Source: Cladocopium goreaui (Eukaryota > Sar > Dinophyceae > Suessiales > Symbiodiniaceae). From it: a stretch of DNA of 64,000 bases. This document shows positions 120-62,610 of the stretch, piece by piece. The stretch is taken from the NCBI GenBank assembly GCA_947184155.2, contig CAMXCT020001394.1, positions 62,001 to 126,000 on the forward strand, in the 5' to 3' direction. The first letter of the stretch is position 1. Each line of letters starts with the position of its first letter. The notes under the pieces were generated by a model that was given only the letters and a program-made list of their open reading frames with translations, was not told the DNA's origin and ran no database searches. Position numbers and translations under genes: made by a program.

Positions 120-672
120 CTCGGTCGTCACGGGGTCACGGGGTCATGGTAATGGCTGATTTTTTTTTGTACCCCAAACTCAATGATATCTCAATGATTA
201 ATCTCCAATAAAGGATATTTTTACTCTGGTTTTACTATTCTACAACTCATTTCTGGTCAGTTTGAGGATTGTTGTTACTGGGTTTACCACATTTTGGGAT
301 AGGGTAGTGACGTGATTGCATTTCCTCATTCATTGCTAAGAAATAACAGCAAACTAGCCAGCAAAGTTGCAGAGAACTCACTACGAGTTGCTTAAATGGC
401 CACCATGGATCTCATGGAACGCCTTTTTCGCAGGGTGCCTTTTGGAAAATATGATTGCATTCCGCATACCTTCAAATTGTTGCCAACGCCTTGTACGGCC
501 CAAAAACATTGTATACCTTACACGGGGCCCAAACATTAACCAGTTTCTCGATTGGGCATTGCTCTTTTCCTGAGATGTACCATTGTTATCATTCATTAGT
601 AGGAATGCTAGTGTATACTATTGTTGTGGCATCTAATGATATTATATAATCACAGTTGTGAACGTTCATGAT
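120..672. other. No gene recognised
   Basis: AT-rich spacer. Overlapping short frames around 367-650 have no splice support and no protein-like composition. I see nothing else. Confidence 0.5.
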
Positions 673-786
673 TACCCTCTGGCAAACTGTCACATAACTA
701 TGGAAAGATCCACCATTTTTCATCGGAAAATCAACTATTTCTATGGCCATGTTCAATAGCTTGTTGTATGTTTACCATGCCGGGCA
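673..786. mobile_element. Family A palindromic element, decayed copy
   Basis: Left end TACCCTCTGGC matches the family A terminus. The internal stretch (CTATGGAAA ... TTCAATAGC) is shared with other copies. The right end has decayed to TTTACCATGCCGGGCA. Confidence 0.65.
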
Positions 787-3260: not shown

Positions 3261-3873
3261 GGTTCTGAAGCTTTGCAAAGGAAACATCTAACCCCCCCCG
3301 CAGACACCCTGAAATGAACCCCAGGCCGACTCAGACCCAAAGAATTCAACTCATGTTTTTTTTAAGGTGGGATTGTCATGCAAGTATGATATGATGCCAC
3401 GGCGCATTGTACACAAACAAAATGCAAGTGCCCGACTGCACAAAACTGGTTTAGACAGTGCCTTTCAGCCTTTCAGCCAGCATTTCCATGCATGTCCGAT
3501 TTAAACATGCAGAATCGATGAATATCATCAAATGTGCGTACTTTTTTGTTGATGCAGTTACAAAGGGACTCCTGAACTGGGTACAGAGAAGCAACTCAAA
3601 ACAGAATCTTGTCTCACAGTCTGACCCAAGATCCAAGGTAAATCACCAAAAAAAACATTAGTTGTAGAGTGGTTATTGTAAGATTTTCCATTATGGGTCT
3701 GTCTGAAAATAGGGCACCTGCGCAGCACCCCAAACCGCGAAATCCCTTTAATTCCCCCCATTGAAATGCCAAAAATGTGACATTTACATTCATTTAGATT
3801 TCAGACACACACATTTTCTGTTCTCACCCATTTTTTTGTTTCCACCGCTTCAGCTGTTATAACATGATATAAC

Positions 3874-4960: not shown

Positions 4961-4992
4961 ATTGTATAGAATATTATATACATAATAGTTGT

Positions 4993-5082
4993 CCCATATG
5001 CTCCATGTATGGAATATTTACCAACATCCGCCTTAAAAATCAACCAAATGTAGGTAAATATATCATACATGGAGCATATGGG
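4993..5082. mobile_element. Family C palindromic element, subtype 2
   Basis: Ends CCCATATGCTCCATGTATGG and its inverse, 90 bases. A close relative lies at 46978-47067. Confidence 0.75.
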
Positions 5083-5881
5083 TATGCCATAGTATGCTTG
5101 TCGGCACAAATTGCCCTTGCTAGTCGTTCTGAACACCATTTCAGGAACATGGGAACTGCAATGGTGATACCCTGTTTATTCCATGGTTGATTCACATCAA
5201 CTTCCCCCACAGGGTTTTTGATGGGAATAGTATGGAGATTGGTTCTGCGGTTCCGTTTTTGACAGTCGCGCGGAGTTGTTTTTCGATCCTCTACGAAAAG
5301 TGCAACTTAGAGTTGTTGGCTGACATGTTCTAGGCTTGTAGTTGTTCTATGATAATCTAACATTATACCCTATATGAATCCCTATGATAATCTATTTACT
5401 ATACAACCTTCATACAATCAAAAAATAGTAAGTGGTAAGGCTGCGGCTGCAATCCCTCTAGATTATCGACCCATCCTGTGGAAAAATCCTAGTGTCAAAA
5501 GCCTATTGGACAAGGTGTTATGCTGGTGAGTCAATATGGTTCCAACAATGGAATATCATCCCTAATATATTGCAAATTCCCAATGCATTGGGTCGTACAG
5601 CCCACTAATCAGCAGGCAACCATTGATGAATTATGTTTTCCCTTTCTTATTGATGGTTCACAAGGAAAAAAACATCCATGAAGGTAACATTACCGCTCAT
5701 CAAGCATCCATCCATGCCCAGCCCGCAATGTCCCTGTTTAGACCATGTTAAACCATGTTAAACCACTAAAAAGGTTCGCTTGCTTTAAGATTTAGCTTGA
5801 AGATTTAGCCCCTTATTTTAGATATGTTATCCCCATTCTACGCATGTTTTCACCGAGGGTTTTCGACGGAAACTGCTCCAC
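5083..5881. other. No gene recognised
   Basis: Mixed AT-rich spacer. I could not support an exon or element. Confidence 0.45.
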
Positions 5882-6001: not shown

Positions 6002-6033
6002 CTGGGATGTTTTCATGGAGGATTCATGGATGT

Positions 6034-6138
6034 TACCCTCTGGTTATGTCAAAATAGCTATTGAAAATTGCCATTTATAGTGAATTTTCCCATTAAAAAT
6101 TGTTATTTTCCATAGTTATGTTGGTTTACCAGAGGGTA
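6034..6138. mobile_element. Family A palindromic element
   Basis: Ends TACCCTCTGGTTATG and TTTACCAGAGGGTA. It lies 32 bases upstream (in minus-strand sense) of the exon ending at 6001, so it is inside an intron. Confidence 0.8.
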
Positions 6139-6911
6139 ATGGAGGATTAATGGATGTTGATGGAGGATCCTTTGAAAATGAACCTGTATGTTTTCATGAA
6201 TGTTTAATACTTGTTTTCATGTAAAGATCCGATGATGAAATTTCAGCTGAATCTGGATTGATCATATTTTTTTATGTTCCATTTTTGATGGTCAGATAAT
6301 TCTCAGATGTTAATACAGATGCCAGTCTTGTTTACCATGCGGTATTTGCCTTGAGGCCAAAGATTTACAGAGACATAATGAACGATTGGACATTTAGACA
6401 CCATTTAAGTGGAATAGCCTTATCAATTCTTATGATCTTAAAATGGAAACACCTTGTAACATAGGTAATTACCCACTGGCATACCTCCAACTAACCGCCA
6501 TTAAATGGGAGAATGGATAATAACCCATTGGAACTTCAGGATGGCGGATTGAAAGTATAAACCAATTGAGCGAACTAGATTCAAGAATGATGTCACATAG
6601 TTGGCCGAGAGTATAATGTTCATCATTCCCAGTTCTAGGTCTTAAGCTCCCAACTTTGGTCAGTTACTTTTGCCATTTCATTTTTTCTATTGTGATAATC
6701 ATGTCCTCCTCCCCAATTTTCATTTCTTAACCTCCCAAAATGCAACATGGAACCCCCCCCAAAAAAGGGCTGAAAACTGATTTTCCCATTTGATCTTGCA
6801 AACAATAGAGGTTCCATCTCGACTTTGGCGCCTTGAACTCCCCATGTGTGACAGCTAGCCCCAAACCCCCGCCCTGTCAGGATTTGAAGGCGCGTTCAAC
6901 CAAATGGGTAC
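6139..6911. other. No gene recognised
   Basis: AT-rich spacer. Only shadow frames were seen. Confidence 0.45.
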
Positions 6912-11223: not shown

Positions 11224-11333
11224 CTGGTTGGTGGTTGAGCCCTACCCCTCTGAAAAATATGAGTTCGTCAGTTGGGATGATGACATTCTCAATATATGGA
11301 AAAATAAAAACCATGTTCCAAACCACCAATCAG
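11224..11333. mobile_element. Family B element acting as an intron
   Basis: Ends CTGGTTGGTGGTTGAG and CAAACCACCAATCAG. Interior CCCTCTGAAAAATATGA and CAATATATGG match the other copies. It lies between two coding-like islands on the minus strand. Confidence 0.75.
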
Positions 11334-13599: not shown

Positions 13600-14861
13600 T
13601 GGTTACGAGGTGGTGCCCTCCTGTTATGCCAAAGCTATGCCATAGCTAAGTTGGTTTGTCTACCAACTTGCCAAACATCACCTTGTAGCCATAGGATTTG
13701 GTTGGCATTTCTTTGTTTGTACAAACCAAATGTCATTGGTAAGGGATAATTGTGATCATTACATGTACACTTAATAATCATTTGTTATTGGGCTTTTATG
13801 GTACTAACCGGTTTCATGGGAGTATAACGGAGTATAGTTTAAAGTTTTAAAACATGGTTTCCTGAAAAATCTCCCATTTAGTCCGCTGATGCTCCCAGCG
13901 GACTAAGCCTCCATAGCTGGTTCGGGGATACCGAAGGGTCACCCAACTATCATCTCAGCAGCCCTCGGAAACAACAAGAGCCATCTGTGAGCTTGTCTAA
14001 CCACGACATGGCAGCCCGCAGAGAGATAGAACAGGTGGAAACATCATGGGCGGTTCACTATGGGAAAAAAAACTATTCACATTCCTAGAAGTTCTATCTG
14101 AACTTGCTTTTTTGCAACCTTTGACTATATCTCACATAAAACATTCTGCCTGTCAGCCACACGGCATCCACTAAGGAGCCAACTCCATTCCCTCCTCCTG
14201 GCACTTCTGCAGGTCCAAAATTCTCACAAAAGGATCAAGATTTCACCAACAATGGGGCCAATAATGGCATTTCCGCTGGTAATGTCCGAATGTGTCCGCG
14301 TTTTTGGTGGTAAACAAATCATGTCAAAACCATTTTTTTAGCCACTATAAATGATCGTGACATCAGCATTGAATAAGTAATTGTTCTGGATACTCTACAG
14401 TTTGTCACTCAGCTGCGATCAGACTACTTGATGGTTGCCCCAATCCTAACCATTCCACTGACGTCGCCGGCAAGTTGTTATCATCCGCACTTTGGGCGTT
14501 TTTCAGACGCAAAAAAAACATGTCTTGGTGTTGTTTAGTTGTCTGAACATGAGGCATGCATCCCTAAAACCCACTGCTTTAGCATATGATTGTCCTTAAA
14601 ACTGCCACTAGTGCCATGGTCAAGTTGTCAAAACATGGTATACGGCTAACGATTATCCATCCCACAATGGGAATCGTTACAACGGAAATGATATTGGCAA
14701 TATACATCCTGACTCATGGATTGATGACCATTCCCAATATCATTGCCAATCTTAGCTGGTGAACGTAGATATTCCCATTGATACCAAAAGACTAGCTAAG
14801 ATTAGTTTGTATCCATCTAAGATTTACCTAGATATGGTATAATCCAACTTTTCATCCTGGC
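13600..14861. other. No gene recognised
   Basis: AT-rich spacer. TACCATGCC-like remnants near 13600-13670 hint at a decayed family A copy, but nothing can be bounded. Confidence 0.4.
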
Positions 14862-15681: not shown

Positions 15682-15783
15682 CTGGTTGGTGGTATACCTA
15701 CCCCTCTGACAAATATGAAAGTCAGTTGGGATGATTATTCGAAATATACGGAAACATCAAAAATGTTCCAAACCACCAACCAG
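15682..15783. mobile_element. Family B element within an intron
   Basis: Ends CTGGTTGGTGGTATACC and CAAACCACCAACCAG. On the minus strand its first bases supply the donor CTG|GTTGG. Confidence 0.75.
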
Positions 15784-19083: not shown

Positions 19084-19186
19084 CTGGTTGGTGGTATACC
19101 TACCTCTCTGAAAAATATTAAAGTCAGTTGGGATGATGACATTCCCAATATATGGAAAAATCAGAATGTTCCAAACCACCACCCAG
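19084..19186. mobile_element. Family B element
   Basis: Ends CTGGTTGGTGGTATACC and CAAACCACCACCCAG, with CCCAATATATGG inside. Confidence 0.75.
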
Positions 19187-19378
19187 ATGATGTATCAACT
19201 TAGTTAAAGGAGTCATTTCATCCCATATGTCAAACTTTTCAGGACCATGAAGCAGGAGTTATGTCATCACATTTATCATACTTTTCAAACTGTTAGCTGG
19301 GCCAAAAATGTAATAAGTCAACCCTTTAATCCTTTACTAATAAACCCCAAACGGCTGTTTGATTGGGAAGGTACTATT

Positions 19379-19488
19379 TACCCTCTGGTTATGTCAAAAT
19401 AGCTATTGAACATGGCCATTGAAATAGTGAGTCTTCCCATTGAAAATGGTGATTTTCCATAGTTTTTTGTATGTTTACCAAAAGGTTT
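19379..19488. mobile_element. Family A element
   Basis: Left end TACCCTCTGGTTATG is intact and the right end is altered to TTTACCAAAAGGTT. The interior is typical. Confidence 0.7.
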
Positions 19489-19599: not shown

Positions 19600-19687
19600 C
19601 TAAAGCTAGCGCGGGACATCTATGAACTCCTTGGTGTGGCAAATATCTACAGTGTTAAGGGATTATTGCAACTAGGGTGTAACCATA

Positions 19688-19785
19688 ACCCATAGGATCC
19701 ATGGTGCTGCTATATATGGTAACATGGATCCCATCAATATACCCCAAATGTTAGCATATATATACCATACATGGATCCTATGGGT
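19688..19785. mobile_element. Family C palindromic element
   Basis: Ends ACCCATAGGATCCATGG and its inverse, 98 bases. Relatives at 26513-26605 and 48852-48942. Confidence 0.75.
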
Positions 19786-19789
19786 AATG

Positions 19790-20394
19790 AAATATGTAAC
19801 TAATGTTTGGGGATTACGGCAACTACAGTGCAACCATAAGGAAACTAATGTTTGGGGATTGTTGTAACTACATGTATATAACTACAGTATAACTTAACCA
19901 TAATGTCTGAAATATACTGAAATATGATGTTAAATATGTTATGCCTTATTACCAACTGACTTTAGGCATTACAACCTCCAGGCACTACGAGTTGAAACCG
20001 AAACCGGGCTCCTTGTTGGGACTAACGTATTGAACTCCATAATTCGGATACGAAGCGGTATGACGAGTATAATGTGAAGATTAATGAACCAGACCCACCA
20101 AATCGCTAATAAGGGTGGTACCAAATTTACTAGGAATCTATCCCTATGTTGGGGTATAGCAAATACTCAAAAGAATTTATTTATCCGGGGCTGGCATTAC
20201 AGATTGAATGGAGGAATGCAAAAGAACATGTTATTGAAAGCAAATAACTCACGGTTTCCTATATCTTAGCAACTCATCAAATGTGACTTTGTTTACAGTG
20301 AACTTCCGCAGAACATGTCTGTCAACCCGGTATTTGGATGGGTCAAGAGTCATACTCAAGGTGAGAAACCTATGACTGCCTGGCTAGTGGCAAC
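19790..20394. other. No gene recognised
   Basis: AT-rich spacer containing a short duplication of GGAAACTAATGTTTGGGGAT-like sequence at 19801-19865. Confidence 0.45.
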
Positions 20395-21092: not shown

Positions 21093-21210
21093 CTGGTTGG
21101 TGGTTTCAATCCCTCTGCAAAATCTTAGTCAGTTGGGATGATTGTTGGGATGATTAGATGATTATTCCCAATATATGGAAAAATAAAAAAGGTTCCAAAA
21201 CACCAACCAG
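21093..21210. mobile_element. Family B element
   Basis: Ends CTGGTTGGTGGTTTCA and AAAACACCAACCAG. It carries an internal duplication of GTTGGGATGATT. Confidence 0.75.
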
Positions 21211-21709: not shown

Positions 21710-21901
21710 CTGGAATGGTTTTCTGCGAGCGGAAAGGGAAACCATGTGTCTCTCCCTCCATAAAATCAAATATAGCTTTCTGAATACATTTGAAAAAAAT
21801 ATTTTGATATTGAAGCATCCAGATTTGGAAAGCGTATGAAAGCGTAGTTCGGTGGATTGATTGAGGTAGAGACCATGATAGAAATCATGAACTGACCGAA
21901 C

Positions 21902-21964
21902 CAATCATTGGGGACCGCTGATCTTCTTGATGCCAATTCCTCGAGACCGACAAAACAATCAGCT
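21902..21964 (-). CDS. Exon downstream of a family B element
   Basis: CCACTACCAG|AGCTG to GATTG|GTTCGG. Reads LIVLSVSRNWHQEDQRSPMI. It joins in frame to the exon at 22106-22169 when the element between them is removed. Confidence 0.65.
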
Positions 21965-21990
21965 CTGGTAGTGGGTCGAGGGATAATTAT

Positions 21991-22108
21991 CTGGTTAGTG
22001 GTGCAATAACCACCTTGAAAAATATGAGTTCGTCAATGGGAAGGATGACATCCCATATTATCACATACATGCAATGGAAAATAAAGCATGTTTGAAACCA
22101 CCAACCAG
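21991..22108. mobile_element. Family B element acting as an intron
   Basis: Ends CTGGTTAGTGGTGCAA and GAAACCACCAACCAG. The minus-strand terminus gives the donor ACTG|GTTGG. The acceptor is 27 bases beyond the other end. Confidence 0.75.
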
Positions 22109-22169
22109 TTATTAAATGATGAGCCAGCTTGAAATGGATATCTGATATCACTGAAGATCTAACTGTGAA
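22106..22169 (-). CDS. Exon flush with a family B element
   Basis: GATCCAG|TTCAC to AACTG|GTTGG, phase 0 to 1. Reads FTVRSSVISDIHFKLAHHLI. The frame also stays open further upstream, so the 5-prime border may lie higher. Confidence 0.55.
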
Positions 22170-23224: not shown

Positions 23225-23247
23225 CTCTTTTGTTTTGCATTAAAAAC

Positions 23248-23362
23248 TGGTTGGTGGTGCAATAACCATCTTGAAACATATGAAAGTCAATGGGAAAGAT
23301 GACAACCCATATTATGCCATATATGAAATGGAAAATGAAAAATGTTCCAAACCACCAACAAG
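23248..23362. mobile_element. Family B element acting as an intron
   Basis: Ends CTGGTTGGTGGTGCAATA and CAAACCACCAACAAG. It separates two strongly coding-like islands almost flush on both sides. Confidence 0.8.
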
Positions 23363-24236: not shown

Positions 24237-24289
24237 CTGCGTGTAATCCCCACGGTGGCATATATCCTGACACGCAAAAATTACTTTAC

Positions 24290-25232
24290 TTCGAGTGATC
24301 CCCACCATGGCATTTATCGAGTTGTTACTGGCAAATCTTCTGTCATTCTATCTGACATATCTTCTGGCATTCGATCTGGCATTCTATCTGGCATATCTCA
24401 TGGCATTTTATCTGGCATATCTTCTGGCATTCTATCTGGCATATCTTCTGGCACACTTTCTGCCAATCTATGTGGCATATCTTCTGGCATTCGATCCGGC
24501 ATTCTCTCTCGCATATCTTCTAACATTCTAGCATTCTATCTGGCATATCTTCTGGCATTCGATCTGGCATTCTATCTGGCATATCTCATGGCATTTTATC
24601 TGGCATATCTTCTGGCATTCTATCTGGCATATCTTCTGGCACACTTTCTGCCAATCTATGTGGCATATCTTCTGGCATTCGATCCGGCATTCTCTCTCGC
24701 ATATCTTCTAACATTCTAGCATTCTATCTGGCATATCTCATGGCATTTTATCTGGCAAATCTTCTGGCATTCTATCTGACATATCTTCTGGCATTCGATC
24801 TGGCATATCTCATGGCATTTTATCTGGCATATCTTCTGGCATTCTATCTGGCATATCTTCTGGCACACTTTCTGCCAATCTATGTGGCATATCTTCTGGC
24901 ATTCGATCCGGCATTCTCTCTCGCATATCTTCTAACATTCTAGCATTCTATCTGGCATATCTCATGGCATTTTATCTGGCATATCCTCTGGCATTCTATC
25001 TGGCATAGCTTCTGGCATTCTGTCTGGCATATCTCATGGCATTTTATCTGGCATATCTTCTGGCATTCTATCTGGCATAGCTTCTGGCGTTCTATCTGGC
25101 ATTTTATCTGGCATATCTTCTGGCATTCTATCTGGCATATCTTCTGGCACACTTTCTGCCAATCTATGTGGCATATCTTCTGGCATTCCATCTGACATTC
25201 TATCTGGCATATCTTCTGGCATTCTATCTGCC
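24290..25232. repeat. TCTGGCATAT array with higher-order repeat (family E)
   Basis: Starts with the GAGTGATCCCCACC boundary. It then holds hundreds of bases of TCTGGCATATCT and TCTGGCATTCTA units. A larger unit ending CTAACATTCTAGCATTC recurs near 24500, 24690 and 24910. Confidence 0.9.
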
Positions 25233-25233
25233 C

Positions 25234-25469
25234 GTTGAGGTCCAGCAGTGCACACTGAGCTGGGGAGGTTTGCGGTTGAGGTCCAGCGGTGCACACTGCG
25301 CTGGGCAAATCCCAGGTTGAGGTCCAGCGGTGCACACTGGGCTGGGCAGGTCCCAGGTTGAGGTCCAGCGATGCACACTGAGCTGAGACGGTCCCTGGTT
25401 GAGGTCCAGCGGTGCACACTGAGCTTGAGGTCCAGCGGTGCACACTGAGCTGGGCAGGTCCCAGGTTGG
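25234..25469. repeat. 41-base tandem repeat, nearly six copies
   Basis: Units begin GTTGAGGTCCAGCGGTGCAC at 25234, 25275, 25316, 25357 and 25398, followed by a shortened copy. Minus frames give APLDLNLG or VHRWTSTWD repeats, which are probably not a real protein. Confidence 0.9.
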
Positions 25470-25612
25470 CGAAGAAGAGTTGGCAAGGAGGAAGTGGAGG
25501 TGGAAGTTGATGCAGACATGGTCGAGGAGAAACTAGAGGGGGAGGAGGAGGAGGACGAGGAGGAGGAGGAGGACAGCTAGCCGAGGAGGAGGAGGAGGAG
25601 GAGAACAGCTCT

Positions 25613-26500
25613 GATAAAATCTAACAACCCTCACCTGGCAGGTGGGGAATTACATGAAAACAATGACATATATGTTGACATTCTATTTGGCAAATGTTCT
25701 GACACATTCCAGCTGGCATCTAATCTGTCATACATTCTGAGATTCTATTTGTCATTCTATCTTGCAAATATGATGGCATTCTATCTGGCATACATTCCGA
25801 CATTTTTTATCTGGCATTCTATCCCACATATACCCTCACATTCTATCTGGCAAATATTCTGAAATTTCATCAGACAAAAGACTTGGCATTCTATCTGGGA
25901 TATTTTCTGACATTCTATCTGCAGACGTTTATGAGGCAGTCTATCTGACAACTGCTATCTGATACTATTTTGACAGTCTATCTGGCATTCTATCTGAAAT
26001 TTCCTGGCAACCTACTTGACACATATTCTGACATTTTACCTGGCAACCTCTCTGACATTATATCTGACATTCTTTTTGGCAATTTATGTGGTGTTTTAAC
26101 TGCCATTCTATATGGCATCCTAACTGTCATGACATGGTTACGCATTCTATCTGACGGTTTATCTGGCATTTGTTCTGGCATTTGGTCTGGCAGTTGAGCT
26201 CGCCTTCGATATGAAATTCTACTTGGCATTTTCTCTGGCACTCTACCCTCTGGTAATTGAACGTAGCTATTATTTGGAATGGCCATAGAAATAGTTGATT
26301 TACACATTAATAGCATGGTCATTTTCCATAGCTATGTAAACGTTTACCAGAGGGTATCTGGAAATCTATCTGATGCTTTATCTGGCTCCACTTGCTCACA
26401 GGGCTCGGGTCCCACAGAGCTGTCGTTCAAATCTAGGGACCCTCACCTGGTGGGGAATGAGGGTCAAGGATCTGTTCTATGAGGCTTGTAATATATTTAA
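25613..26500. repeat. Degenerate TCTGGCAT array (family E)
   Basis: Begins after the AAATCTAACAACCCTCACC boundary and contains many diverged TCTGGCATTCTA units. It is interrupted by a family A element at 26244 and ends near a related CCTCACCTGGTGGGGAA motif at about 26440. Confidence 0.8.
26244..26356. mobile_element. Family A element inserted in a repeat array
   Basis: Ends TACCCTCTGGTAATTG and GTTTACCAGAGGGTA. Removing it and one TA restores the repeat phrase GGCACTCTATCTGG, which shows insertion at TA. Confidence 0.85.
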
Positions 26501-26512
26501 TATACCTCATGA

Positions 26513-26605
26513 CGGATCCATGGTGCTGGTATATATGCTAACATGACTGGGGTATATTGATGGGATCCATGTTACCATATATAGCATGCATGGATCCTAT
26601 GGGTA
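26513..26605. mobile_element. Family C palindromic element
   Basis: Shares GGATCCATGGTGCTG and CATGGATCCTATGGGTA with the copy at 19688. The middle is inverted relative to it. Confidence 0.7.
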
Positions 26606-27182
26606 CCGTCATACCTCAATATATGCCGAGTAGGATACAAAAAATATATGAAAATATGACGCCTATGATATCTTACTTGCATGTACGGCGTATAGTGGCA
26701 ATTATAAATGCTGCATATTCATATGAGTGTAACCGTGTGGTTTTCAAGCCAGCCAACTCAGATTAGTAGAGGGTTGACTGAACATATAGGCGAACTATAT
26801 CAAGTCCTTCTCCTGATGTAAGGCTATCTTCGGATGATTCCCCTTGCTCATGGTCATTTATTGGTGAGGCCGTTGTCTCAAGGAAACAGACCTGGCAGTC
26901 GATATATCCCAGTGTTTCGATTGAAAATCATGTGTCAACAAAGTATTGTCGTGCAGCATGCTAGGTTGGATTACTGGAAGGTAAGCAGAACCAACAACCA
27001 ACCCGGCTGTCGAGTGTCTACTCAACTTGACACACCTGGATATGGATTTGTTTTCTATACCGAACGTCTGTTCAGTGTGCTAGTGGAGTTGTGTGTTTTG
27101 ATTTAATTACTTTGTTATTACGTCCCCTTTTCTTTTCTTGGCAAATGCCCCATTTGTGCACAAATCTGCCCCAGCCCATCAC
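26606..27182. other. No clear gene
   Basis: A minus frame around 26870-27040 (TAGLVVGSAYLPVIQPSMLH) is open, but no splice border was found. The rest is AT-rich. Confidence 0.35.
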
Positions 27183-30726: not shown

Positions 30727-30984
30727 CTCAAAACATGGGTCTTTTGGGCTGGTTGCACATAGGCAAACATGGCAAACCATGATCCTATGCAATTCAAACA
30801 CACAAATCAGAAATCGCACCATTTTGCGGTGCTCTCCCTGTTTCTCATCGTTTACCCTGAGGTAGTTGCATGAGGTCGTCCTAGTCATAATCTTGCATGC
30901 GGATGTGTGGATTAGTGGGGTCCCCCTGCAAAGGCACCATGAAAGCACCAATCTGGAAACCTGTTTTGAGAAGTCAATTTGATA

Positions 30985-31128
30985 AGGGTATTGATGATGA
31001 TGATGATGATGATGCTGCTGCTAATGATGATGATGGCAATGGCAATGGCAATGGCAATGGCGACGACGACGACGATGATGGCGATGCTGGTGATGCTGCT
31101 GATGATGATGATGATGATTTGACACAAA
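30985..31128. repeat. GAT/GGC/GAC triplet repeat
   Basis: GATGATGAT with an internal GGCAAT and GACGAC section. The aspartate-run frames are artefacts. Confidence 0.9.
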
Positions 31129-31409
31129 CCTAATAGCTGTAACAGCGAGCACGATCTAGAGCACGATTTTTGGCACGAAGGCGAGCACCAAAAAGCACGA
31201 TCTAGAGCATGATTTTTGGCACGAGGGAAAGCACCAAAAAGCACGATTTGTGGCAGGAAGGAGAGCACCAAAAAGCACGAACTAGAGTACGATTTTTTGC
31301 ACGAGGGAAAGCACCGAAAAGCACGATTTTGTGCACGAAGGAAAACACTCAAAATAACGTTCGCCCAAAATATAAAGAAATCCTTGTTTTGACTGTTACA
31401 GCTATTAGG
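31129..31409. mobile_element. Inverted-repeat element G, copy 1
   Basis: Starts CCTAATAGCTGTAACAG and ends with the exact inverse CTGTTACAGCTATTAGG, 281 bases. The interior is a roughly 30-base repeat of GCACGATTTTTGGCACGAGG units. Both flanks are GAT repeats. Confidence 0.8.
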
Positions 31410-31419
31410 CCGAACTCAA

Positions 31420-31421
31420 AA

Positions 31422-31487
<66 letters not shown>

Positions 31488-31497
31488 GTGGATGATA

Positions 31498-31529
<32 letters not shown>

Positions 31530-31727
31530 GATGATGGTGATGATGGTGATGATGATGATGATGATGATGGTGATGATGTTGATGTTGATGTTGATGATGG
31601 TGATGATGATGGTGATCATGATGATGACCATGATCATGATGATGGTGATGATTCTGATCATCACGATGATGATGCTGATGATGATGATGATGATGATGAG
31701 GATGATGATGATGATGATGATGATGAT
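31420..31727. repeat. GAT triplet repeat
   Basis: About 300 bases of GAT with sporadic GGT, GTT and GAC variants, lying between the two copies of element G. Confidence 0.95.
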
Positions 31728-31737
31728 TTGACACAAA

Positions 31738-32052
31738 CCTACTAGCTGTAACAGCGAGCACGATCTAGAGCACGATTTTTGGCACGAAAGAGAGCACCAA
31801 AAAGCACAATCTAGAGCATGATTTTTGGCACGAGGGAAAGCACCAAAAAGCACGATTTGTGGCACGAGGGAAAGCACCAAAAAGCACGATTTTTGGCACG
31901 AAGGAGAGCACCAAAAAGCATGATCTAGAGTACGATTTTTTGCACGAGGGAAAGCACCAAAAAGCACGATTTTTGGCACGAAGGAAAACACTCAAAACAA
32001 CGTTCGCCCAAAATATAAAGAAATCCTTGTTTTGACTGTTACAGCTATTAGG
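31738..32052. mobile_element. Inverted-repeat element G, copy 2
   Basis: Starts CCTACTAGCTGTAACAG and ends CTGTTACAGCTATTAGG. 315 bases, same orientation and interior as copy 1, followed by another GAT run to 32113. Confidence 0.8.
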
Positions 32053-32074
32053 ACGAACTCAAAAGATGATGATG

Positions 32075-32106
<32 letters not shown>

Positions 32107-32164
32107 GATGATAAAATGCGTCCATAAAAAATAAAACACATTTTTTCATCACGGTGCCAATCCC

Positions 32165-42827: not shown

Positions 42828-42929
42828 CTGGTTGGTGGTTTCAACCCCTCTGGAAAATATGAAAGTCAGTTGGGATGCTTATTCCCAATATGTGGAAAAT
42901 GAAAAGTCATGTTCCAAACCACCAACCAG
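42828..42929. mobile_element. Family B element
   Basis: Ends CTGGTTGGTGGTTTCAACC and CAAACCACCAACCAG. A clean 102-base copy. Confidence 0.8.
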
Positions 42930-45242: not shown

Positions 45243-45280
45243 CTTAAATGAAATCTTTTGATTTTTAGTTACAGTAGTAT

Positions 45281-45384
45281 TATCCTCTGGTAAACTAACA
45301 TAACTATGGAAAATCACCATGTTTAATGGGTAAATCAACTATAAATGACCATTTTCAATAGCTATGTTTGTTTACCAGAGGGTA
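45281..45384. mobile_element. Family A element
   Basis: Ends TATCCTCTGGTAAACTAAC and GTTTACCAGAGGGTA. Confidence 0.8.
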
Positions 45385-45830
45385 GTTGGAGTCAAACTTT
45401 CTTTGCAAAACTGGGGGTTTAGGTCAAAAAAACAAGTTGGATCAAGAGGTCAGTGCGACTTAGCCAGCCACTTAGTACCCAATAGTTCAAAAAACGCCAA
45501 GGGGTGCAAAATTGGTGAGTGATTGAGCGTGATTGATTGGCGCGTGAAAGACCGTTTTTTAGCGTGAACCACCGTTTTTTGAGCATGAACGTGAACCACT
45601 GTGTCCCAAAAAAATGTTATGTTTGATGTTTTTTGCTTTGGATATCTTCAGTCGCCAAATATCACAAAACAAATTGAATCTTTTCAAGGCCACTGCAGAT
45701 CATAGTTGCAAGAATGTTTGAGACGCTTTGCAAAAGGCATTTGAAAAGGATACCCAGCAGATGCAGGTTCCGTAGCCGGGGAGGTTGCAAGTTTCCCCAG
45801 CCAGAAGAGAAGTAAAGTATACATACATAC

Positions 45831-46839: not shown

Positions 46840-46977
46840 CTTCCAAAATAAGTGATGAGTAAAACACGTGCAAAGAAAGTCTGCAATTTCATGGTTTTGC
46901 TGAACTCATCCAGTAGCATACCAATGATTTATCATGAATTAATTCATGATATATCTCAAGTTCATGACCAAAATAAT

Positions 46978-47067
46978 CCCATATGCTCCATGTATGGAAT
47001 ACTTACCAACATTTGCCCTAAAAATCACCCAAATGTAGGTAAATATACCATATATGGAGCACATGGG
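46978..47067. mobile_element. Family C palindromic element, subtype 2
   Basis: Ends CCCATATGCTCCATGTATGG and its near inverse. Matches 4993-5082. Confidence 0.75.
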
Positions 47068-47156
47068 AATGGATTCAAAGAAAAGAACTTATTCTGAATA
47101 GCACGACATGTAGCGCAGCGTCACCTGCGGGAAATAACAGCTGTAAAAGCTGAACT

Positions 47157-47364
47157 AGTTGGTGGTTTTTAAACCATCCCCCCAAAAATATTAGTACCCT
47201 CTGGTTATTTAACATAGCCATGATGGAAAATGGCCCATTTATAGATGGTTTACCTATTAAAAATTGTGATTTTCCATGGCTATGTTAAATAACCAAATGG
47301 TAATTTAAACCAATCATCCCGAGTATGGTTGAAAAACAATACAGACATTTGAAACCACCAACCA
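47157..47364. mobile_element. Family B element interrupted by family A
   Basis: TAGTTGGTGGTTTTTAAACC begins and GAAACCACCAACCAG ends it. The normal family B length is doubled by a complete family A copy in the middle. Confidence 0.75.
47195..47302. mobile_element. Family A element nested in family B
   Basis: Ends TACCCTCTGGTTATTTAAC and AAATAACCAAATGGTA. Removing it restores a family B length of about 100 bases. Confidence 0.8.
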
Positions 47365-47381
47365 GCGAAGAGATCTTCGAA

Positions 47382-48270: not shown

Positions 48271-48496
48271 CTTGATGTATGGCGACCAATGGCGACCAAT
48301 GATATCTGCTTGGTGGTGACTTAACCATTAGTAAATATACCATTAGTATTCCATTAACCATTATATAATTAATTATTCCATATTAGTAATTATACCTGGT
48401 GGTGACTTAACCATGGGAATCCCAACATTATGGCTATGTAAATCCTTATTAAGTTTCCCATTAAAAATAAGGTGATTTAGAGGATATAGATCACTG

Positions 48497-48608
48497 CTTG
48501 GTGGTGCAATTTCACTATCGTGAAAAATGATGGACTTCGTCAATGGGTTCCGGATGACAACTTTTTTTTTATGAAATGGAAAAAAACATGTTTGAAACCA
48601 CCAACCAG
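48497..48608. mobile_element. Family B element
   Basis: Ends CTTGGTGGTGCAATTTC and GAAACCACCAACCAG. Confidence 0.75.
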
Positions 48609-48799: not shown

Positions 48800-48851
48800 C
48801 TGATCCAGAAAAGGGTATTAAAACAGTAGTAATAAAAATATTGTGGTATAT

Positions 48852-48942
48852 CCCATGGGATCCATGTATGCGATATATGATGACATTTTCCATCAATATA
48901 CCCCAAATGTTAGCATATATACCATACATGGATCCTACGGGT
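48852..48942. mobile_element. Family C palindromic element
   Basis: Ends CCCATGGGATCCATGTATG and CATACATGGATCCTACGGG. Confidence 0.7.
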
Positions 48943-49072
48943 ATTGTCACTTGGGTTTCACTTGGCTTATCCTCCAAGATCATGAATCGTGTTTGGTTTC
49001 AAACGTGCCCTTCTGAATATTTCCTGACTCAGCTATGAAAGAGCTGAAGGGATGAACGTGAGGGGTGTTCAC

Positions 49073-51608: not shown

Positions 51609-51735
51609 CTTGGTGGTTGAGCCCTACCCCTCTGAAAAATGATGGAGTGAGTTCGTCAGTTGGGATGATTATTCCATTCCATTCCCAATATGGTGGGAAC
51701 GTCATAATCCAGCCATGCTCCAAACCACCAATCAG
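51609..51735. mobile_element. Family B element
   Basis: Ends CTTGGTGGTTGAGCCC and CAAACCACCAATCAG. Confidence 0.75.
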
Positions 51736-53918: not shown

Positions 53919-54004
53919 CTGACAGCTTCCATTGCAAAATGCTCGCCTTGCATTTTTTCCGCCAGATAGAATTATTTCCACCTTCGAGGTATTTTGGGGT
54001 TGGA

Positions 54005-55340
54005 TGTGTAATTATGTGATGTGACCCAATATGTTTTTCTTATCTTTTCCTCATCTTCATGGGTCTGAAATGGTTTACCACATCCTGAAACCAGAAATAT
54101 TCACCACAAATGCTATGGGAACATCATTTCAGACCCATCAAGATGGACCATTCCCAACTATACAGAAGAGAAACCATCACCATCAACATATCAGAAAGAA
54201 TGTCAGAAGATATGCCAGATAGAATGTCAGAAGATATGCCAGATAGAATACCAGAAGATATGCCAGATAGAATGTCAGAAGATATGCCAGATAGAATGTC
54301 AGATAGAATGCTAGAAGATTTGGCAGATAGAATACCAGATAGAATGTCAGAAGATATGCCAGATAAATTATCTTTTCCTCATCTTCATGGGTCTGAAATG
54401 GTTTACCACATTCTGAAACCAGAAACATTCACCACAAATGCTATGGGAACATCATTTCAGACCCATCAAGATGGACCATTCCCAACTACACAGAAGAGAA
54501 ACCATCACCATCAACAAAGATATCAATGATATGTGTTAATACCAATGGGTATTTGATTTGGAATCATTCCAACCTTCCAGGTATTTTGGGGTTGGATGTG
54601 TAATTATGTGATGTGACCCAATATGTTTTTCTTATCTTTTCCTCATCTTCATGGGTCTGAAAAGGTTTACCACATCCTGAAACCAGAAATATTCACCACA
54701 AATGCTATGGGAACATCATTTCAGACCCATCAAGATGGACCATTCCCAACTATACAGAAGAGAAACCATCACCATCAACAAAGATATCAATGATATGTGT
54801 TAATACCAATGGGTATTTGATTTGGAATCATTCCAACCTTCCAGGTATTTTGGGGTTGGATGTGTAATTATGTGATGTGACCCAATATGTTTTTCTTATC
54901 TTTTCCTCATCTTCATGGGTCTGAAATGGTTTACCACATCCTGAAACCAGAAATATTCACCACAAATGCTATGGGAACATCATTTCAGACCCATCAAGAT
55001 GGACCATTCCCAACTATACAGAAGAGAAACCATCACCATCAACATATCAGAAAGAATGTCAGAAGATATGCCAGATAGAATGTCAGAAGATATGCCAGAT
55101 AGAAAACCAGAAGATATGCCAGATAGAATGTCAGAAGATATGCCAGATAAATTATCTTTTCCTCATCTTCATGGGTCTGAAATGGTTTACCACATCCTGA
55201 AACCAGAAATATTCACCACAAATGCTATGGGAACATCATTTCAGACCCATCAAAATGGATCATTCCCAACTACACAGAAGAGAAACCATCACCATCAACA
55301 AAGATATCAATGATATGTGTTGATACCAATGAGTACTTGA
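54005..55340. repeat. Five-copy tandem repeat with embedded ATGCCAGATAGAA arrays
   Basis: Copies of a roughly 150-base core starting TATCTTTTCCTCATCTTCAT lie at about 54042, 54370, 54633, 54897 and 55153. Two copies carry arrays of AGATATGCCAGATAGAATGT units, the reverse complement of the family E unit. The RMSEDMPD-type frames are artefacts. Confidence 0.9.
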
Positions 55341-55436
55341 TTTGGAATCATTTCCCAATATGTTATTATGCGATTCGCAAGCATTCATCAAATATGTTAT
55401 TCGTTTATTTGTGTAATTATGCACCATTATGAACCA

Positions 55437-55760: not shown

Positions 55761-56167
55761 TAGTTGAGGGGATATTGATAATACATCATAGTACACAATA
55801 TCATTAATAATAATTCTGATAAAATGATTCCTATATGGATTGATGGTTACCACCCCGTTGATTTTTCAAACCTTGGGGATGGTTTACTGCTGACATCTGA
55901 CATCCCATCCCGCCCCTAAAATGAACCGCAAACCATGGTGCAGGATGCAGGATTGACACGTATTGATTCTGGGTAAATTATAATAATTCACTAACCAGAA
56001 TAGTTCGAGACACGTATCAAAAAAAAATATAAATGCATCAAAAAAAATATCCAGCACGCATCAAAAAAAAATAAAAATGCATCAAAAAAAAATATCCAGA
56101 TGCCACTGTGTGAGACCTCCTGAGTCTCGTGCTGCAAACCTAGATCAAAAAAAAATATCCGTATCAA

Positions 56168-56184
56168 AAAAAAAATATAGTAGT

Positions 56185-56216
<32 letters not shown>

Positions 56217-56286
56217 TAATAGTAGTAGTAGTAGTAGCAGCAGTAGCAGTAGCAGTAGCAGTGGCAGTAGCAGTAGCAGTAGCAGT

Positions 56287-56318
<32 letters not shown>

Positions 56319-56835
56319 TTGTAGTAGCAGTAGTAGTAGTAGTAGCAGTAGTAGTAGTAATAGTAGTAGTAGTAATAATAGTAGTAGTAGTAGCAGCAGT
56401 AGCAGTAGCACTAGCAGTAGCAGTGGCAGTAGCAGTAGCAGTAGTAGCAGCAGCAGCAATAGTGGTTGTAATGGTCGTAGTAGTAGTGGTAGTAGTGGTA
56501 CTAGTAGTGGTACTAGTAGTAGTGGTAGTAGTGGTGGTAGTAGTAGTGGTAGTAGTAGTGGTAGTAGTAGTGGTAGTAGTGGTAGTAGTAGTAGTAGTTG
56601 TTGTAGTAGTAGTAGTAGATGTGGTTGTCGTCGTAAGAATAACAATAGTCGCAGGGGTAGCAGTAGCAGTAGCAGTAGTAGTAGCAGTAGCAGTAGCAGT
56701 AGTAGTAGCAGCAGCAGTAGTTAGTAGTAGTAATAGTAGTAGTAGAAGTAGTAGCAATAGTAATAGTAATTAATAGTAATAGTAATAGCAATAGTAATAG
56801 AGATAGTAGTAGTCGTCGTCGCAGTAGTAGTAGTC
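56168..56835. repeat. AGT/AGC triplet repeat
   Basis: About 670 bases of AGT and AGC triplets with GGT variants. Poly-serine, -leucine and -valine frames are artefacts. Confidence 0.95.
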
Positions 56836-56863
56836 GTCAAAAAGGAAATGCTAATAAAAAAAA

Positions 56864-57250
56864 AGCGGGTGGGGGGCGCAGGGGGGAGGGCGCAGCGCCT
56901 CCCCCCGCAATGCGTACCAAGAAAGAAGCACATAGGCACATGTCTCGATGGATATCAATAAAGTTGAAATGAGCCCAAGGAAAGGATGATGCTTATGAAA
57001 AAGCAAAAGAATAGTAGGTACAGATGGGAGCCAGTTAAAAAAATAAAAGCGGGTGGGGGGGTGCAGGGGGGAGGACGCAGCGCCCGCCCCCGCAATGCGT
57101 ACCAAGAAAGAAGCACATAGGCACATGTCTCGATGGACATCAATAAAGTTGAAATGAGCCCAAGGAAAGGATGATGCTTATGAAAAAACAAAGAAATAGT
57201 AAGTATATAGCAAGGGGAGCCGGTTAAAAAAGTAAAAGCGGGTGCGGGGA
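56864..57250. repeat. Tandem repeat of about 185 bases, 2.1 copies
   Basis: Units start AAGCGGGTGGGGGG near 56862, 57045 and 57236. They contain a G-rich head and GCACATAGGCACATGTCTCG. Confidence 0.9.
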
Positions 57251-57399
57251 GCAGGGGATTTTTTGGTATGTTTTGGAAACACATCTATGTGGTTCTAACT
57301 TGCATCTCAGCTCAATATTTCTGCAACGGGTTCCGAACGAGGCCAAAAACGATGCCAAAACGAGGCCAGAAAATAGCTTTGGAAACCCCTTAACTCTAG

Positions 57400-57950
57400 C
57401 AGCTCAGCAGGAAAGGGGAACGAGAAAGGGGGGGGGGAAAAGAGAGGAAAGGAAGGAACCATCCACACCCACCTCCCCCACCCCGGCACCCATCCACCCG
57501 CGCAAGTGACCGCACCAACATCGAGGCGGCACCACCCCCTGAGACGCGAACCGTGACACCGGAACACGAAAGTGGAAGAGGGACGGAAACGCGCAAAGGA
57601 AGGAAGTAAAAGAAGGAGAGGAAAGAGGACAGAAGGGACAAGGGAAGAAGGGGAATGAAGAAGGAAGGGAAGGAAGGAAGGCAGGAAAGAAGGGATAGCC
57701 ACTCCCCCGGCAAGGTAAGGAAGGAAAGGGAAGGAAAGAAGGAAAGCAAGGAAGGCAGAAAGAAGGAAAGAAGAAAGAAGGAAAGAAGGACAGGAAAGAA
57801 GAAGGAAAGAACGGAAGAACAGAGAAGAAAGAAAGACACGAAGGAAGGAAGGAGCGATGAAGGAAGGCGAAGGAGGGAAGGAAGGAATGGAAGGACCAAG
57901 AAGGGGAAAGAAGGAAACAAAGAAGGAAAGAAGAAGCCAAACACAGAACC
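57400..57950. repeat. GGAA/GAAG purine tract
   Basis: Strand-asymmetric purine-rich DNA with AAGGAAGGAAGG units. A pyrimidine tract follows at 57980-58060. Long frames here are composition artefacts. Confidence 0.9.
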
Positions 57951-58442
57951 GTTGACTCCCCTAGAATGACAACGTAAAGCAAGAAATCCCCCCCCCTTTT
58001 CCCCTCCCCAATCTTCTGCCCCCTTCCTCCCCCCCCCCCCTTCCCCTTTCCCCCCACTACCCCACTCCTTACCAACTTCACTTACCTCCTATATCTCCAT
58101 AACCCTACCACGTCGTTCCGTCCTTCCCATAATTCCTCTCACACTTACGTTTACAGCACTGTATGGCACATTTCATTTGCTTTTTCGGCACCCCGACCAT
58201 TTATATTTTTTTTGATGCATTTTTATTTTTTTTGATGCATTTTTATTTTTTTTTTGATGCGTCTCCCCAGTAGTTCGGCCACTTGGGGATGATTTCCCGA
58301 ATCCTAACCATGATTCCCAGGGTTCAGTCACGACGTGAGGTCGTGATGAAATTTACCCAGATTGATGTATTGGGATGTATTGGGACCATTTAGGGCAAAT
58401 TTAGGGGTTGTTGAATATTAGCGGGGTGGGATTATTTTCATA

Positions 58443-59883: not shown

Positions 59884-60054
59884 CTGGGATACATGATATA
59901 GTACTATACACTTTATTTCAAATGTATCCCATTCATATACAGTAAACATAATTATATATATATACAGTACTATACTATATTTATATGCATGATATAGTAA
60001 TATACAATAGTTCAAATGTAATTAATATATATATATATATATATCGTTGGCCAC

Positions 60055-60203
60055 GAAATAGCTAGATAGATAGATAGGTAGATAGATAGATAGATATAGA
60101 AAGAGATAGATAGATATAGAAAGAGATAGATAGATACATAGATAGATAGATAGATAGATAGACAGATAGGTAGATAGACAGATAGATAGATAGATATAGA
60201 AAG

Positions 60204-60268
<65 letters not shown>

Positions 60269-60898
60269 TAGATAGATATAGATAGATATAGATAGATATA
60301 GATAGATATAGATAGATACAGATAGATATAGATAGATATAGATAGATATAGATAGATATAGATAGATATAGATAGATACAGATAGATATAGATAGATATA
60401 GATAGATATAGATAGACATAGATAGATATAGATAGATATAGATAGATATAGATAGATATAGATAGATATAGATAGATATAGATAGATATAGATAGATATA
60501 GATAGATATAGATAGATATAGATAGATATAGATAGGTGTAGATAGATATAGATAGATATAGATAGATATAGATAGATATAGATAGATATAGATAGATATA
60601 GATAGATATAGATAGATAGATAGATAGATATAGATAGATAGATAGATATAGATAGATATAGATAGATATAGATAGATATAGATAGATATAGATATATATA
60701 GATAAATAGATAGATAGATAGATAGATAGAAAAATAGATATATAGATAGATAGATAGAAGGGTGGATAAAAGATAGATAGATATAAAAATAGATAGATAG
60801 AACAATAGATAGATCGATAAATAATTAGATAGAAAGATAGCTAGATAGATAGATAGATTAGATAGATAGATTAGATACAGTAGGTTAGATAGATCGAT

Positions 60899-60929
<31 letters not shown>

Positions 60930-61170
60930 CTAGCTAGATAGATAGATAGATAGATATAGATAGATAGATAGATAGATAAGACAGAAAGAAAGAAAGAAAG
61001 AGAGAAAAAAAGAAAGAAAGATAGATAGATAGATAGACAGACAGATAGATAGATAGATAGATAGATAGATTAGATAGATAGATGGATAAGATAAGATAAT
61101 ATAATATAAGATAAAATTAGATTAGATTAGATTAGATAGACAGACAAACAAATAGATAGATATAGAGATA
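60055..61170. repeat. Long GATA microsatellite
   Basis: About 1.1 kb of GATA and GATATA units with a GAAA patch near 60985-61020. YLSISIYI-type frames are artefacts. Confidence 0.98.
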
Positions 61171-62490: not shown

Positions 62491-62497
62491 ATGACTG

Positions 62498-62610
62498 CTT
62501 GGTGGTTGAGCCCTACCCCTCTGAAAAATGATGGAGTCAGTTGGGATGATTATTCCATTCCCAATATGATGGGAAAACTAATCCAGCCATGTTCCAAACC
62601 ACCAACCAAA
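62498..62610. mobile_element. Family B element
   Basis: CTTGGTGGTTGAGCCCTACC to CCAAACCACCAACCAA, close to the copy at 51609. Confidence 0.7.

What the first reader, a model, noticed from the sequence alone, without database searches (positions are those of the whole stretch)
21902..22169. Family B element is an intron with an in-frame join (introner), case 1
Seen: the exon at 22106-22169 ends ACTG|GTTGG, where GTTGG is the element terminus. The next exon starts 27 bases beyond the other terminus at CTACCAG|AGCTG. Removing the intervening sequence joins phase 1 to phase 1 and reads HHLIT-E-LIVLSVSRNW without a stop. Known: introners are short transposon-like elements that create introns and are reported from dinoflagellates among others. 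Inference: family B is such a family.
Basis: partly seen in the sequence, partly recalled or inferred. Interest (0 to 1): 0.8.

Follow-up and report, generated by a model that had tools for sequence, protein, structure and literature searches.

The report
One-way mobile DNA, not an intron
The 118-base repeat is a small jumping-DNA relic in a dinoflagellate-like genome rather than the intron it was taken for, and its copies nearly all point the same way along a contig, which may record the direction of transcription or replication.

Summary
The element is real. The intron claim at this site is not supported. Window 21991-22108 is a 118-bp member of an abundant family (CTGGTTGGTGG...CCACCAACCAG) flanked by TTAT|TTAT. 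Of 64 copies with intact ends, 23 have exact 4-bp target duplications against 2.0 by shuffling: a non-autonomous TIR transposon (MITE). The claimed in-frame join is what chance gives (40% of random GT..AG joins are open). The claimed exons have no Pfam match, and coding-like segments in the window barely exceed the control (41 against 38). In two neighbouring genes whose intron could be read, the copy lies well inside the intron.

The surprise is polarity. All 58 copies in 264 kb of two contigs lie on one strand, and 43 of 44 adjacent same-contig pairs among 216 listed places genome-wide agree. Two other asymmetric repeat families behave alike (28/28, 21/21); near-palindromic family A is mixed (38/31). 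Genes lie opposite to the '+' reading on 9 of 11 comparable contigs (9 of 9 within 400 kb). So these elements seem to be inserted, or kept, in a fixed orientation relative to large unidirectional blocks. The cause is not shown.

The parts
21991..22108 (+). Focal family B element, 118 bp, ends CTGGTTAGTGG..CCACCAACCAG ('+' reading; the inferred gene-sense reading is the minus strand)
   Evidence: nhmmer 103.3 bits, model 1-108
21987..21990 (.). Left copy of the 4-bp target-site duplication TTAT
   Evidence: family-level 4-bp duplication
22109..22112 (.). Right copy of the 4-bp target-site duplication TTAT
22106..22169 (-).
21888..21964 (-).
11224..11333 (+). Family B copy
15682..15783 (+). Family B copy, duplication ATGA
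19084..19186 (+). Family B copy, duplication ATGA
21093..21210 (+). Family B copy
23247..23362 (+). Family B copy, flanked by AAAA|AAAA
29094..29209 (+). Family B copy, duplication ATGG
42828..42929 (+). Family B copy
47155..47365 (+). Family B copy interrupted by a family A element at about 47195-47304 (nested insertion); only 47255-47365 is aligned by the model
48494..48608 (+). Family B copy
51609..51735 (+). Family B copy, left end degraded
62495..62609 (+). Family B copy
14746..14835 (+). Fragment of asymmetric family E, same polarity as B
58274..58362 (+). Fragment of asymmetric family F, same polarity as B

Best explanation
Family B is a non-autonomous cut-and-paste DNA transposon (MITE) of a dinoflagellate-like genome: mostly about 95-122 bp, terminal inverted repeats of at least 11 bp, 4-bp target-site duplication, asymmetric interior. 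The copy at 21991-22108 is such an insertion into TTAT in non-coding (intronic or intergenic) DNA; it is not itself an intron. Shown: terminal repeats, duplication, abundance, one-strand polarity over up to hundreds of kb, the same polarity in two other asymmetric repeat families, and copies inside (not equal to) two introns. Inferred: polarity follows the unidirectional gene blocks. The mechanism I think most likely is that insertion itself is oriented: the transposition complex tells its two ends apart and meets target DNA in a state made polar by transcription or by a replication fork travelling with it. A lesser possibility is near-complete loss of wrong-way copies by selection. Near-palindromic families are mixed because their two orientations are almost equivalent.
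For: TIR and 4-bp duplication: 64 copies with CTG..CAG termini, 23 exact at k=4 (shuffled mean 2.04); other lengths from 3 up give few (k=3: 3 against 2.04; k=5: 1 against 0.30; k=6: 1 against 0.09; k=7: 2 against 0.06; k=8: 0). Abundance: exact 35-mer 405 forward and 385 reverse genome-wide, backwards control 0/0. Polarity: 58 of 58 '+' in 264 kb of two contigs, reverse-complement control 58 of 58 '-'; with score at least 40 and strand margin at least 20 bits, 54 of 54. 216 distinct listed places on 172 contigs: 43 of 44 adjacent same-contig pairs agree, up to 474 kb apart; the one switch is on C335 between 521 kb and 1.09 Mb. Families E 28/28 and F 21/21 on the same strand as B, and co-oriented with B on three further contigs, 3 of 3. 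Family A 38/31. Gene strand opposite to B '+': 9 of 11 contigs, 9 of 9 with the gene within 400 kb. B inside introns: the L008 join reads [38 protein letters not shown], intron 715 nt GC..AG|G, B 1501-1610 inside; L028 light-harvesting intron 1511 nt, B 1501-1608 inside. For oriented insertion over selection: family F shows almost no motif or A/T asymmetry between strands (A 0.302, T 0.296; three motifs 1/0, 0/0, 0/1 of 21), yet is fully polar.
Against: No transposase was looked for beyond Pfam scans of chosen ORFs, and none was found. The 264 kb come from two contigs, and 26 of 28 E hits from one, so these are not independent observations; the independent evidence is the 44 pairs and the contig-level gene comparison (and among the 44, C6024 and C368 have equal scores and may be one region twice). 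One weak opposite-strand hit exists: L025, 16.4 bits, at the site of a 69.7-bit plus-strand match. The gene comparison is small: C557 (473 kb, a multi-copy kinase gene) and C380 (549 kb) have gene and element on the same strand, so 9 of 11 overall (two-sided sign test about 0.07, own arithmetic); the 400-kb cut was set after seeing the data, and three of the nine genes are weak or carry a stop (C313, C293, C1868). Left out of that count: two below-cut-off Pfam matches beside B, a recombinase ORF in L007 on the same strand as B and a zinc-ribbon ORF in L020 on the strand opposite to B; counting them gives 10 of 13. Other repeat clusters are not polar: 52 copies 31/21, 11 copies 5/6, 5 copies 2/3, 5 copies 4/1; all have inconsistent links, but only 1 copy of the 11-member cluster has an inverted self-match, so it is not plainly palindromic. 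Family A, mixed, is a weak control because 65 of its 106 copies also match on the other strand. For B itself selection is possible: TTTTTCA(A)G occurs in 63 of 85 copies on the gene-sense strand and 0 on the other, AATAAA in 1 versus 38. Terminal repeats of E and F were judged by eye (F clear, E imperfect) and their duplications were not tested.
Confidence: 0.72

Rival explanations
1. One reading: the element created an intron at this site (introner); transcripts splice from CTG|GTTGG at 22106 to CTACCAG|AGCTG at 21964 and join two coding exons.
For: Open joined frame; dinoflagellate introners with 4-bp duplications and TIRs are in print (PMC9860276 Fig. 2B legend, read); the minus strand is the expected transcribed strand.
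Against: 40% of random GT..AG joins are equally open; no Pfam match for either piece; no clear coding signal in the window (41 against 38); the acceptor is 26 bases outside the element; the two introns read beside B are larger and contain it.
Confidence: 0.04
2. Family B is an introner family of the Symbiodinium microadriaticum type (5' splice site from the duplication, 3' splice site CAG at its end). Copies in coding exons become introns, and the copies seen here are mostly copies that landed in non-coding DNA.
For: 4-bp duplication, TIR and terminal CAG match the architecture described in PMC9860276; the gene-sense strand is T-rich and carries acceptor-like motifs in 63 of 85 copies, 0 on the other strand; a fixed gene-sense orientation is what splicing would require.
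Against: Only 1 of 23 exact duplications starts with G[TCA] (GCAT on '+'; read in gene sense also 1, ATTC giving GAAT); 0 of 2 introns read beside B equal a B copy; polarity also holds for families E and F, of which F lacks the acceptor asymmetry and E has a weaker one (16 against 4 of 28 for a pyrimidine-AG motif).
Confidence: 0.2
3. Polarity is produced by purifying selection: most of this DNA is transcribed in one direction, and wrong-way copies (with AATAAA and A-rich sequence, lacking intron-like composition) disrupt pre-mRNAs and are lost.
For: AATAAA 38 of 85 on the non-gene-sense strand against 1; gene-sense T 0.348, A 0.258; near-palindromic family A, for which orientation hardly matters, is mixed.
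Against: Would need practically complete removal of wrong-way copies in three families, including F, which shows almost no such asymmetry. Dinoflagellate transcripts are not known to rely on AATAAA (recalled, no call).
Confidence: 0.27
4. Polarity marks the replication fork direction (fork-coupled insertion) and only coincides with transcription. This is one branch of the best explanation, scored apart.
For: Domains of hundreds of kb with one switch seen on C335 fit replication domains as well as gene blocks.
Against: No replication data are on hand; gene strand agreement (9 of 11) is expected under either if forks and transcription are co-directional.
Confidence: 0.25

Closest known systems
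[quoted passage not shown]
   Same: About 110 bp, terminal inverted repeats, fixed-length target duplication, high copy number, nested insertion.
   Different: Near-complete one-strand polarity over up to hundreds of kb; the superfamily is not assigned (4-bp duplication, CTGGTTGG ends) and no transposase was found.
Symbiodinium microadriaticum introners (Gozashti et al. 2022, PMC9860276, Fig. 2B legend)
   Same: 4-bp duplications, TIRs, element ends in CAG, dinoflagellate-like host, orientation fixed relative to genes.
   Different: The two copies examined in genes are not introns; the duplications are AT-rich and do not supply a G[TCA] 5' splice site (1 of 23).
Amoebophrya introner elements (Farhat et al. 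2021, PMC7789003; passages seen)
   Same: Inverted repeats of 8-20 nt, short direct repeats, dinoflagellate lineage.
   Different: Those were identified as introns from RNA-seq, with non-canonical splice sites; none of that is shown for family B.
Unidirectional gene blocks and transcription-linked domains of dinoflagellate chromosomes (Nand et al. 2021, PMC8110479; passages seen)
   Same: Strand coherence over long distances with rare switches.
   Different: Described there for genes and transcripts; the 12 passages I saw say nothing of transposon strand, and 'transposable' has 0 occurrences in the main text.

Membership tests
MITE (non-autonomous TIR DNA transposon) | Terminal inverted repeats at both ends | tested here: met
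   Of 85 full-length copies, 73 start CTGG and 62 end CCAG
MITE (non-autonomous TIR DNA transposon) | Fixed-length target-site duplication | tested here: met
   4 bp: 23 of 64 exact against 2.04 shuffled; no other length from 3 to 8 exceeds 3 of 64
MITE (non-autonomous TIR DNA transposon) | Short, many dispersed copies | tested here: met
   Mostly 95-122 bp; 790 exact 35-mers genome-wide; 58 hits in 264 kb
MITE (non-autonomous TIR DNA transposon) | Autonomous relative encoding the transposase with the same ends | not tested
   No search for an autonomous copy was made
Introner | Element ends coincide with, or lie near, intron splice sites across copies | tested here: not met
   0 of 2 introns read beside B; B lies inside 715- and 1511-nt introns. 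Only two cases, so rare introner copies are not excluded
Introner | Splicing out the element restores the reading frame of a real protein | tested here: inconclusive
   The focal join is open, but 7981 of 20000 random joins are too; no Pfam match
Introner | Splicing demonstrated by RNA | not testable with these tools
   No transcript data on hand
Introner of the S. microadriaticum type | 5' splice site supplied by the duplication (G[TCA] at its start) | tested here: not met
   1 of 23 exact duplications on the '+' reading (GCAT); in gene sense also 1 of 23 (the one ending in C, ATTC), counted by eye from the list
Introner | Enrichment inside genes | not testable with these tools
   No gene annotation on hand; B is absent from 6 of the 20 fetched 10-kb stretches (L035, L038, L039, L040, L043, L049), among them those with the longest ORFs, which is only suggestive

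The most novel reading that the evidence does not exclude
Dinoflagellate chromosomes impose orientation on cut-and-paste transposition: asymmetric short elements of several unrelated families insert almost exclusively in one orientation relative to a large-scale strand-polar process (transcription of unidirectional gene blocks, or co-directional replication). Their strand is therefore a fossil record of block direction that can be read from bare assembly sequence.
Probability: 0.4. Interest if true: 0.85.

Novelty: new variant of a known kind. Interest (0 to 1): 0.64.

Why it matters
DNA transposons with inverted repeats normally land in both orientations. Near-perfect polarity over up to hundreds of kb is hard to explain by the textbook mechanism. 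It would make the direction of transcription or replication blocks readable from unannotated dinoflagellate contigs, and it bears on how introners come to sit in the right orientation for splicing, an open question in intron gain. It also corrects an over-reading: an open joined frame is no evidence of an intron in this genome.

Tried and rejected
Tried and led nowhere: Rfam (0 matches) and tRNA (0) scans of the window. Pfam scan of 34 longer ORFs (0 families). Codon-usage scan for exons in the window (41 segments against 38 in the reversed control). GC and AT skew as an independent direction marker (no consistent sign). A multi-ORF repeated element on L040/L041 and L038/L039 as direction marker: it lies in opposite orientation relative to B on the two contigs, so it is probably mobile and uninformative. 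RNA folding of two copies: both strands fold better than most shuffles, as TIRs would, with no strand preference worth using.

Rejected: the open joined frame as evidence; the idea that polarity is an artefact of strand calling (reverse-complement control, and strand margins); the idea that every repeat here is polar (family A 38/31 and family C 7/3 at score 40 and margin 20; clusters of 52, 11, 5 and 5 copies mixed).

Seen but not used: the Pfam scan of 134 ORFs also gave PTN_MK_N, EF-hand and Nup188 matches (E 5.7e-5, 0.0012, 0.0071) whose ORFs I did not identify, a Phage_integrase match in L007 and a DZR_2 match in L020, both below their cut-offs.

Not answered: searches for 18S rRNA, the dinoflagellate spliced leader, PF00091, PF13041, PF00225, a genome-wide pattern of family A and one of family F, so organism identity and those controls rest on less than I wanted.

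Full report
What was claimed. On the minus strand, an 'exon' at 22169-22106 ends ACTG|GTTGG at a family B terminus and the next 'exon' starts at 21964, 27 bases beyond the other terminus, with an open joined frame; hence an introner.

Check of the observation. The letters are as described..ATAACTG|GTTGGTGG.. and ..CTACCAG|AGCTG.., a 141-nt gap, joined frame ..LAHHLITELIVLSVSRNWHQEDQRSPMIGSVSS*. But the element runs from 21991 to 22108, so the donor is three bases inside it and the acceptor 26 bases outside it. The element is flanked by TTAT on both sides (21987-21990, 22109-22112). Of 20000 random joins of a GT and a downstream AG on this strand of the window, 7981 are open over 64+64 nt in at least one frame. 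Neither piece matches a Pfam family at E 1. A codon-usage scan trained on eight long ORFs finds 41 coding-like segments in the window and 38 in the reversed control. I conclude that the join is not evidence of an intron.

What the element is. Family B was modelled from 39 copies: 30 from a DNA search of the whole genome (40 places scored of 337 candidates, a lower bound) and 9 of the window. Nhmmer finds 58 copies (E at most 1e-3) in 264 kb: the 64-kb window, 90 kb more of its contig C1394, and 110 kb of C557. Among 85 full-length copies with both flanks (three loci that duplicate others were dropped beforehand), 73 start CTGG and 62 end CCAG. Of the 64 with CTG..CAG termini, 23 carry an exact 4-bp duplication (shuffled mean 2.04); lengths 3, 5, 6, 7 and 8 give 3, 1, 1, 2 and 0. 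Duplications are A/T-rich. An exact internal 35-mer occurs 405 times forward and 385 times reverse in 1.166 Gb, with none for the backwards control. One window copy is interrupted by a family A element (47155-47365). This is a MITE by every feature I tested; its transposase was not sought and its superfamily is unknown.

Polarity. Every one of the 58 hits is on the + strand; scanning the reverse complement returns 58 on minus. With score at least 40 and a strand margin of at least 20 bits it is 54 of 54. In 14 of the 30 loci there is more than one copy, and all are co-oriented, except for one weak opposite-strand match (L025, 16.4 bits) lying on a 69.7-bit plus match. In the same 264 kb, near-palindromic family A is 38 plus and 31 minus at the same thresholds, and family C 7 plus and 3 minus. 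I combined the listed places (216 distinct places on 172 contigs, 32 of them with two or more; the tool lists only the first 100 places of a pattern). 43 of 44 adjacent pairs on a contig agree, 18 of them more than 100 kb apart and one 474 kb apart; the single disagreement is C335, + at 521 kb and - from 1.09 Mb on. C6024 and C368 have pairs of equal score and may be one region assembled twice. Across contigs both strands are used about equally (113 to 103), as expected if contig orientation is arbitrary.

Other families. After masking A, B, C and tandem repeats, six clusters of five or more dispersed copies remain. The two without inconsistent links are fully polar: 21/0 and 8/0. As models, E (134 positions) gives 28 of 28 plus hits, 26 of them on C557, and F (128 positions) 21 of 21, 12 on C557 and 9 on C1394. 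Neither has an inverted self-match in any copy (0 of 21, 0 of 8), though 4 of 8 F copies have an inverted match to another member, as inverted ends would give; their ends look inverted by eye, F clearly, E imperfectly, and their duplications were not tested. The four clusters with inconsistent links are mixed: 52 copies 31/21 (14 with an inverted self-match), 11 copies 5/6 (1), 5 copies 2/3 (3), 5 copies 4/1 (4). In the B loci of other contigs, E or F occur three times, each co-oriented with B (L017, L029, L008).

Relation to genes. Pfam scans of 34, 134 and 117 ORFs, picked by length or coding score from the candidate ORFs (2057, 3426 and 4831), gave two usable genes beside B. L008: a TFIIS-type zinc ribbon (PF01096, 1.4e-13) on the strand opposite to B '+'; joining ..TTCTACAG|GCGCTGG and CCACAG|GTGTACGG.. 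restores [38 protein letters not shown], a 715-nt intron with B (1501-1610) inside it. L028: a light-harvesting gene (PF00504, 6.7e-4, below its cut-off) on the strand opposite to B '+', with LANGRLAMMAI and QDGLFGTPYGLYTGSNAFETELGVQ separated by 1511 nt that hold B (the exact border is my reading). Genome-wide family searches gave gene strands for PF00504, PF00069 and PF00520. Of all listed rows I could use only those on contigs with a listed B place (script; for one search compared by eye): opposite to B '+' at C311 (16 kb), C101 (54 kb), C293 (78 kb, E 3.2e-6, one stop), C1668 (126 kb), C6024 (277 kb), C1868 (359 kb, E 1.3e-4) and C313 (398 kb, one stop); same at C557 (473 kb, a kinase gene present in nine copies of nearly equal score) and C380 (549 kb, two adjacent kinases). 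With L008 and L028 that is 9 of 11 contigs, or 9 of 9 within 400 kb, a cut chosen after seeing the data. Two below-cut-off matches beside B were left out: L020 (zinc ribbon, opposite) and L007 (recombinase, same).

Mechanism. In gene sense B is T-rich (T 0.348, A 0.258) and 63 of 85 copies carry TTTTTCA(A)G, 0 on the other strand; AATAAA is on the other strand in 38 against 1. This allows two stories: B is built to be spliced or tolerated in one orientation, or wrong-way copies are purged. But F has almost no such asymmetry (A 0.302, T 0.296) and is as polar as B, which favours insertion oriented by a strand-polar process. Transcription and replication cannot be separated here. The passages seen of PMC8110479 describe unidirectional gene blocks with domain boundaries where blocks converge, and those of PMC9412976 such blocks in Cladocopium; the scale fits.

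Organism. Genome size 1.166 Gb in 6202 contigs, single-strand arrays of light-harvesting genes, GT/GC..AG|G introns and strand-coherent contigs point to a photosynthetic dinoflagellate, probably Symbiodiniaceae (inference). The Cladocopium goreaui assembly of PMC9412976 (1.2 Gb, 6843 scaffolds, 44.38% GC) is near but not shown to be the same; sampled GC here is 41.4%, and the 18S search did not complete.

Known or new. Introners in dinoflagellates, including a 4-bp-duplication TIR type in S. microadriaticum, are in print (PMC9860276: outline and Results section read; the Roy 2023 paper is known to me only through a review passage in PMC11453091). I saw no report of strand-polar MITEs in dinoflagellates in the listings; that library lacks most subscription papers, and I read only passages or sections of five of the papers listed.

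Noticed in passing
window 668-784, 2593-2702, 6033-6141, 19376-19486, 45279-45385 and others: Family A: about 110-bp near-palindromic elements with ends TACCCTCTGGT..ACCAGAGGGTA, 106 hits in 264 kb, orientation mixed.
   Followed up: partly
window 4992-5086, 19685-19795, 26493-26611, 46976-47071, 48848-48949: Family C: about 100-bp near-palindromic elements (CCCATAGGATCCATG..), 16 hits in 264 kb.
   Followed up: partly
L040 1-8641, L041 2249-4237, L038 5538-7415, L039 2077-10000: A repeated multi-ORF element of about 14 kb with about 36-58% protein identity between matched pieces of its copies on C557 and C1394, no Pfam match for the long ORFs scanned; one copy has a 132-nt GT..AG|G intron (L041 about 3281-3412, borders by eye) that the other lacks.
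   Followed up: partly
G000 contig C1 (positions to at least 7.28 Mb): C1 carries several dozen kinase domains in long open frames on mixed strands, unlike the rest of the assembly; it may be a bacterial chromosome assembled with the alga.
   Followed up: no
G000 contigs C1298, C4657, C1535, C1247, C518, C779, C2657, C2890, C557: A kinase ORF of 446 codons present in nine copies of nearly equal score (117.8-118.5 bits), perhaps a recently amplified or mobile gene.
   Followed up: no
L007 3-980: ORF with a weak tyrosine-recombinase (Phage_integrase) match, E 4.6e-5, below the curated cut-off; possibly a recombinase-bearing mobile element.
   Followed up: no
window 24278-26357, 30957-32112, 53969-55352, 56079-57960, 59943-61069: Large low-complexity and minisatellite arrays (12-nt, 3-nt, 264-nt and GATA units) that make long spurious ORFs.
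   Followed up: no
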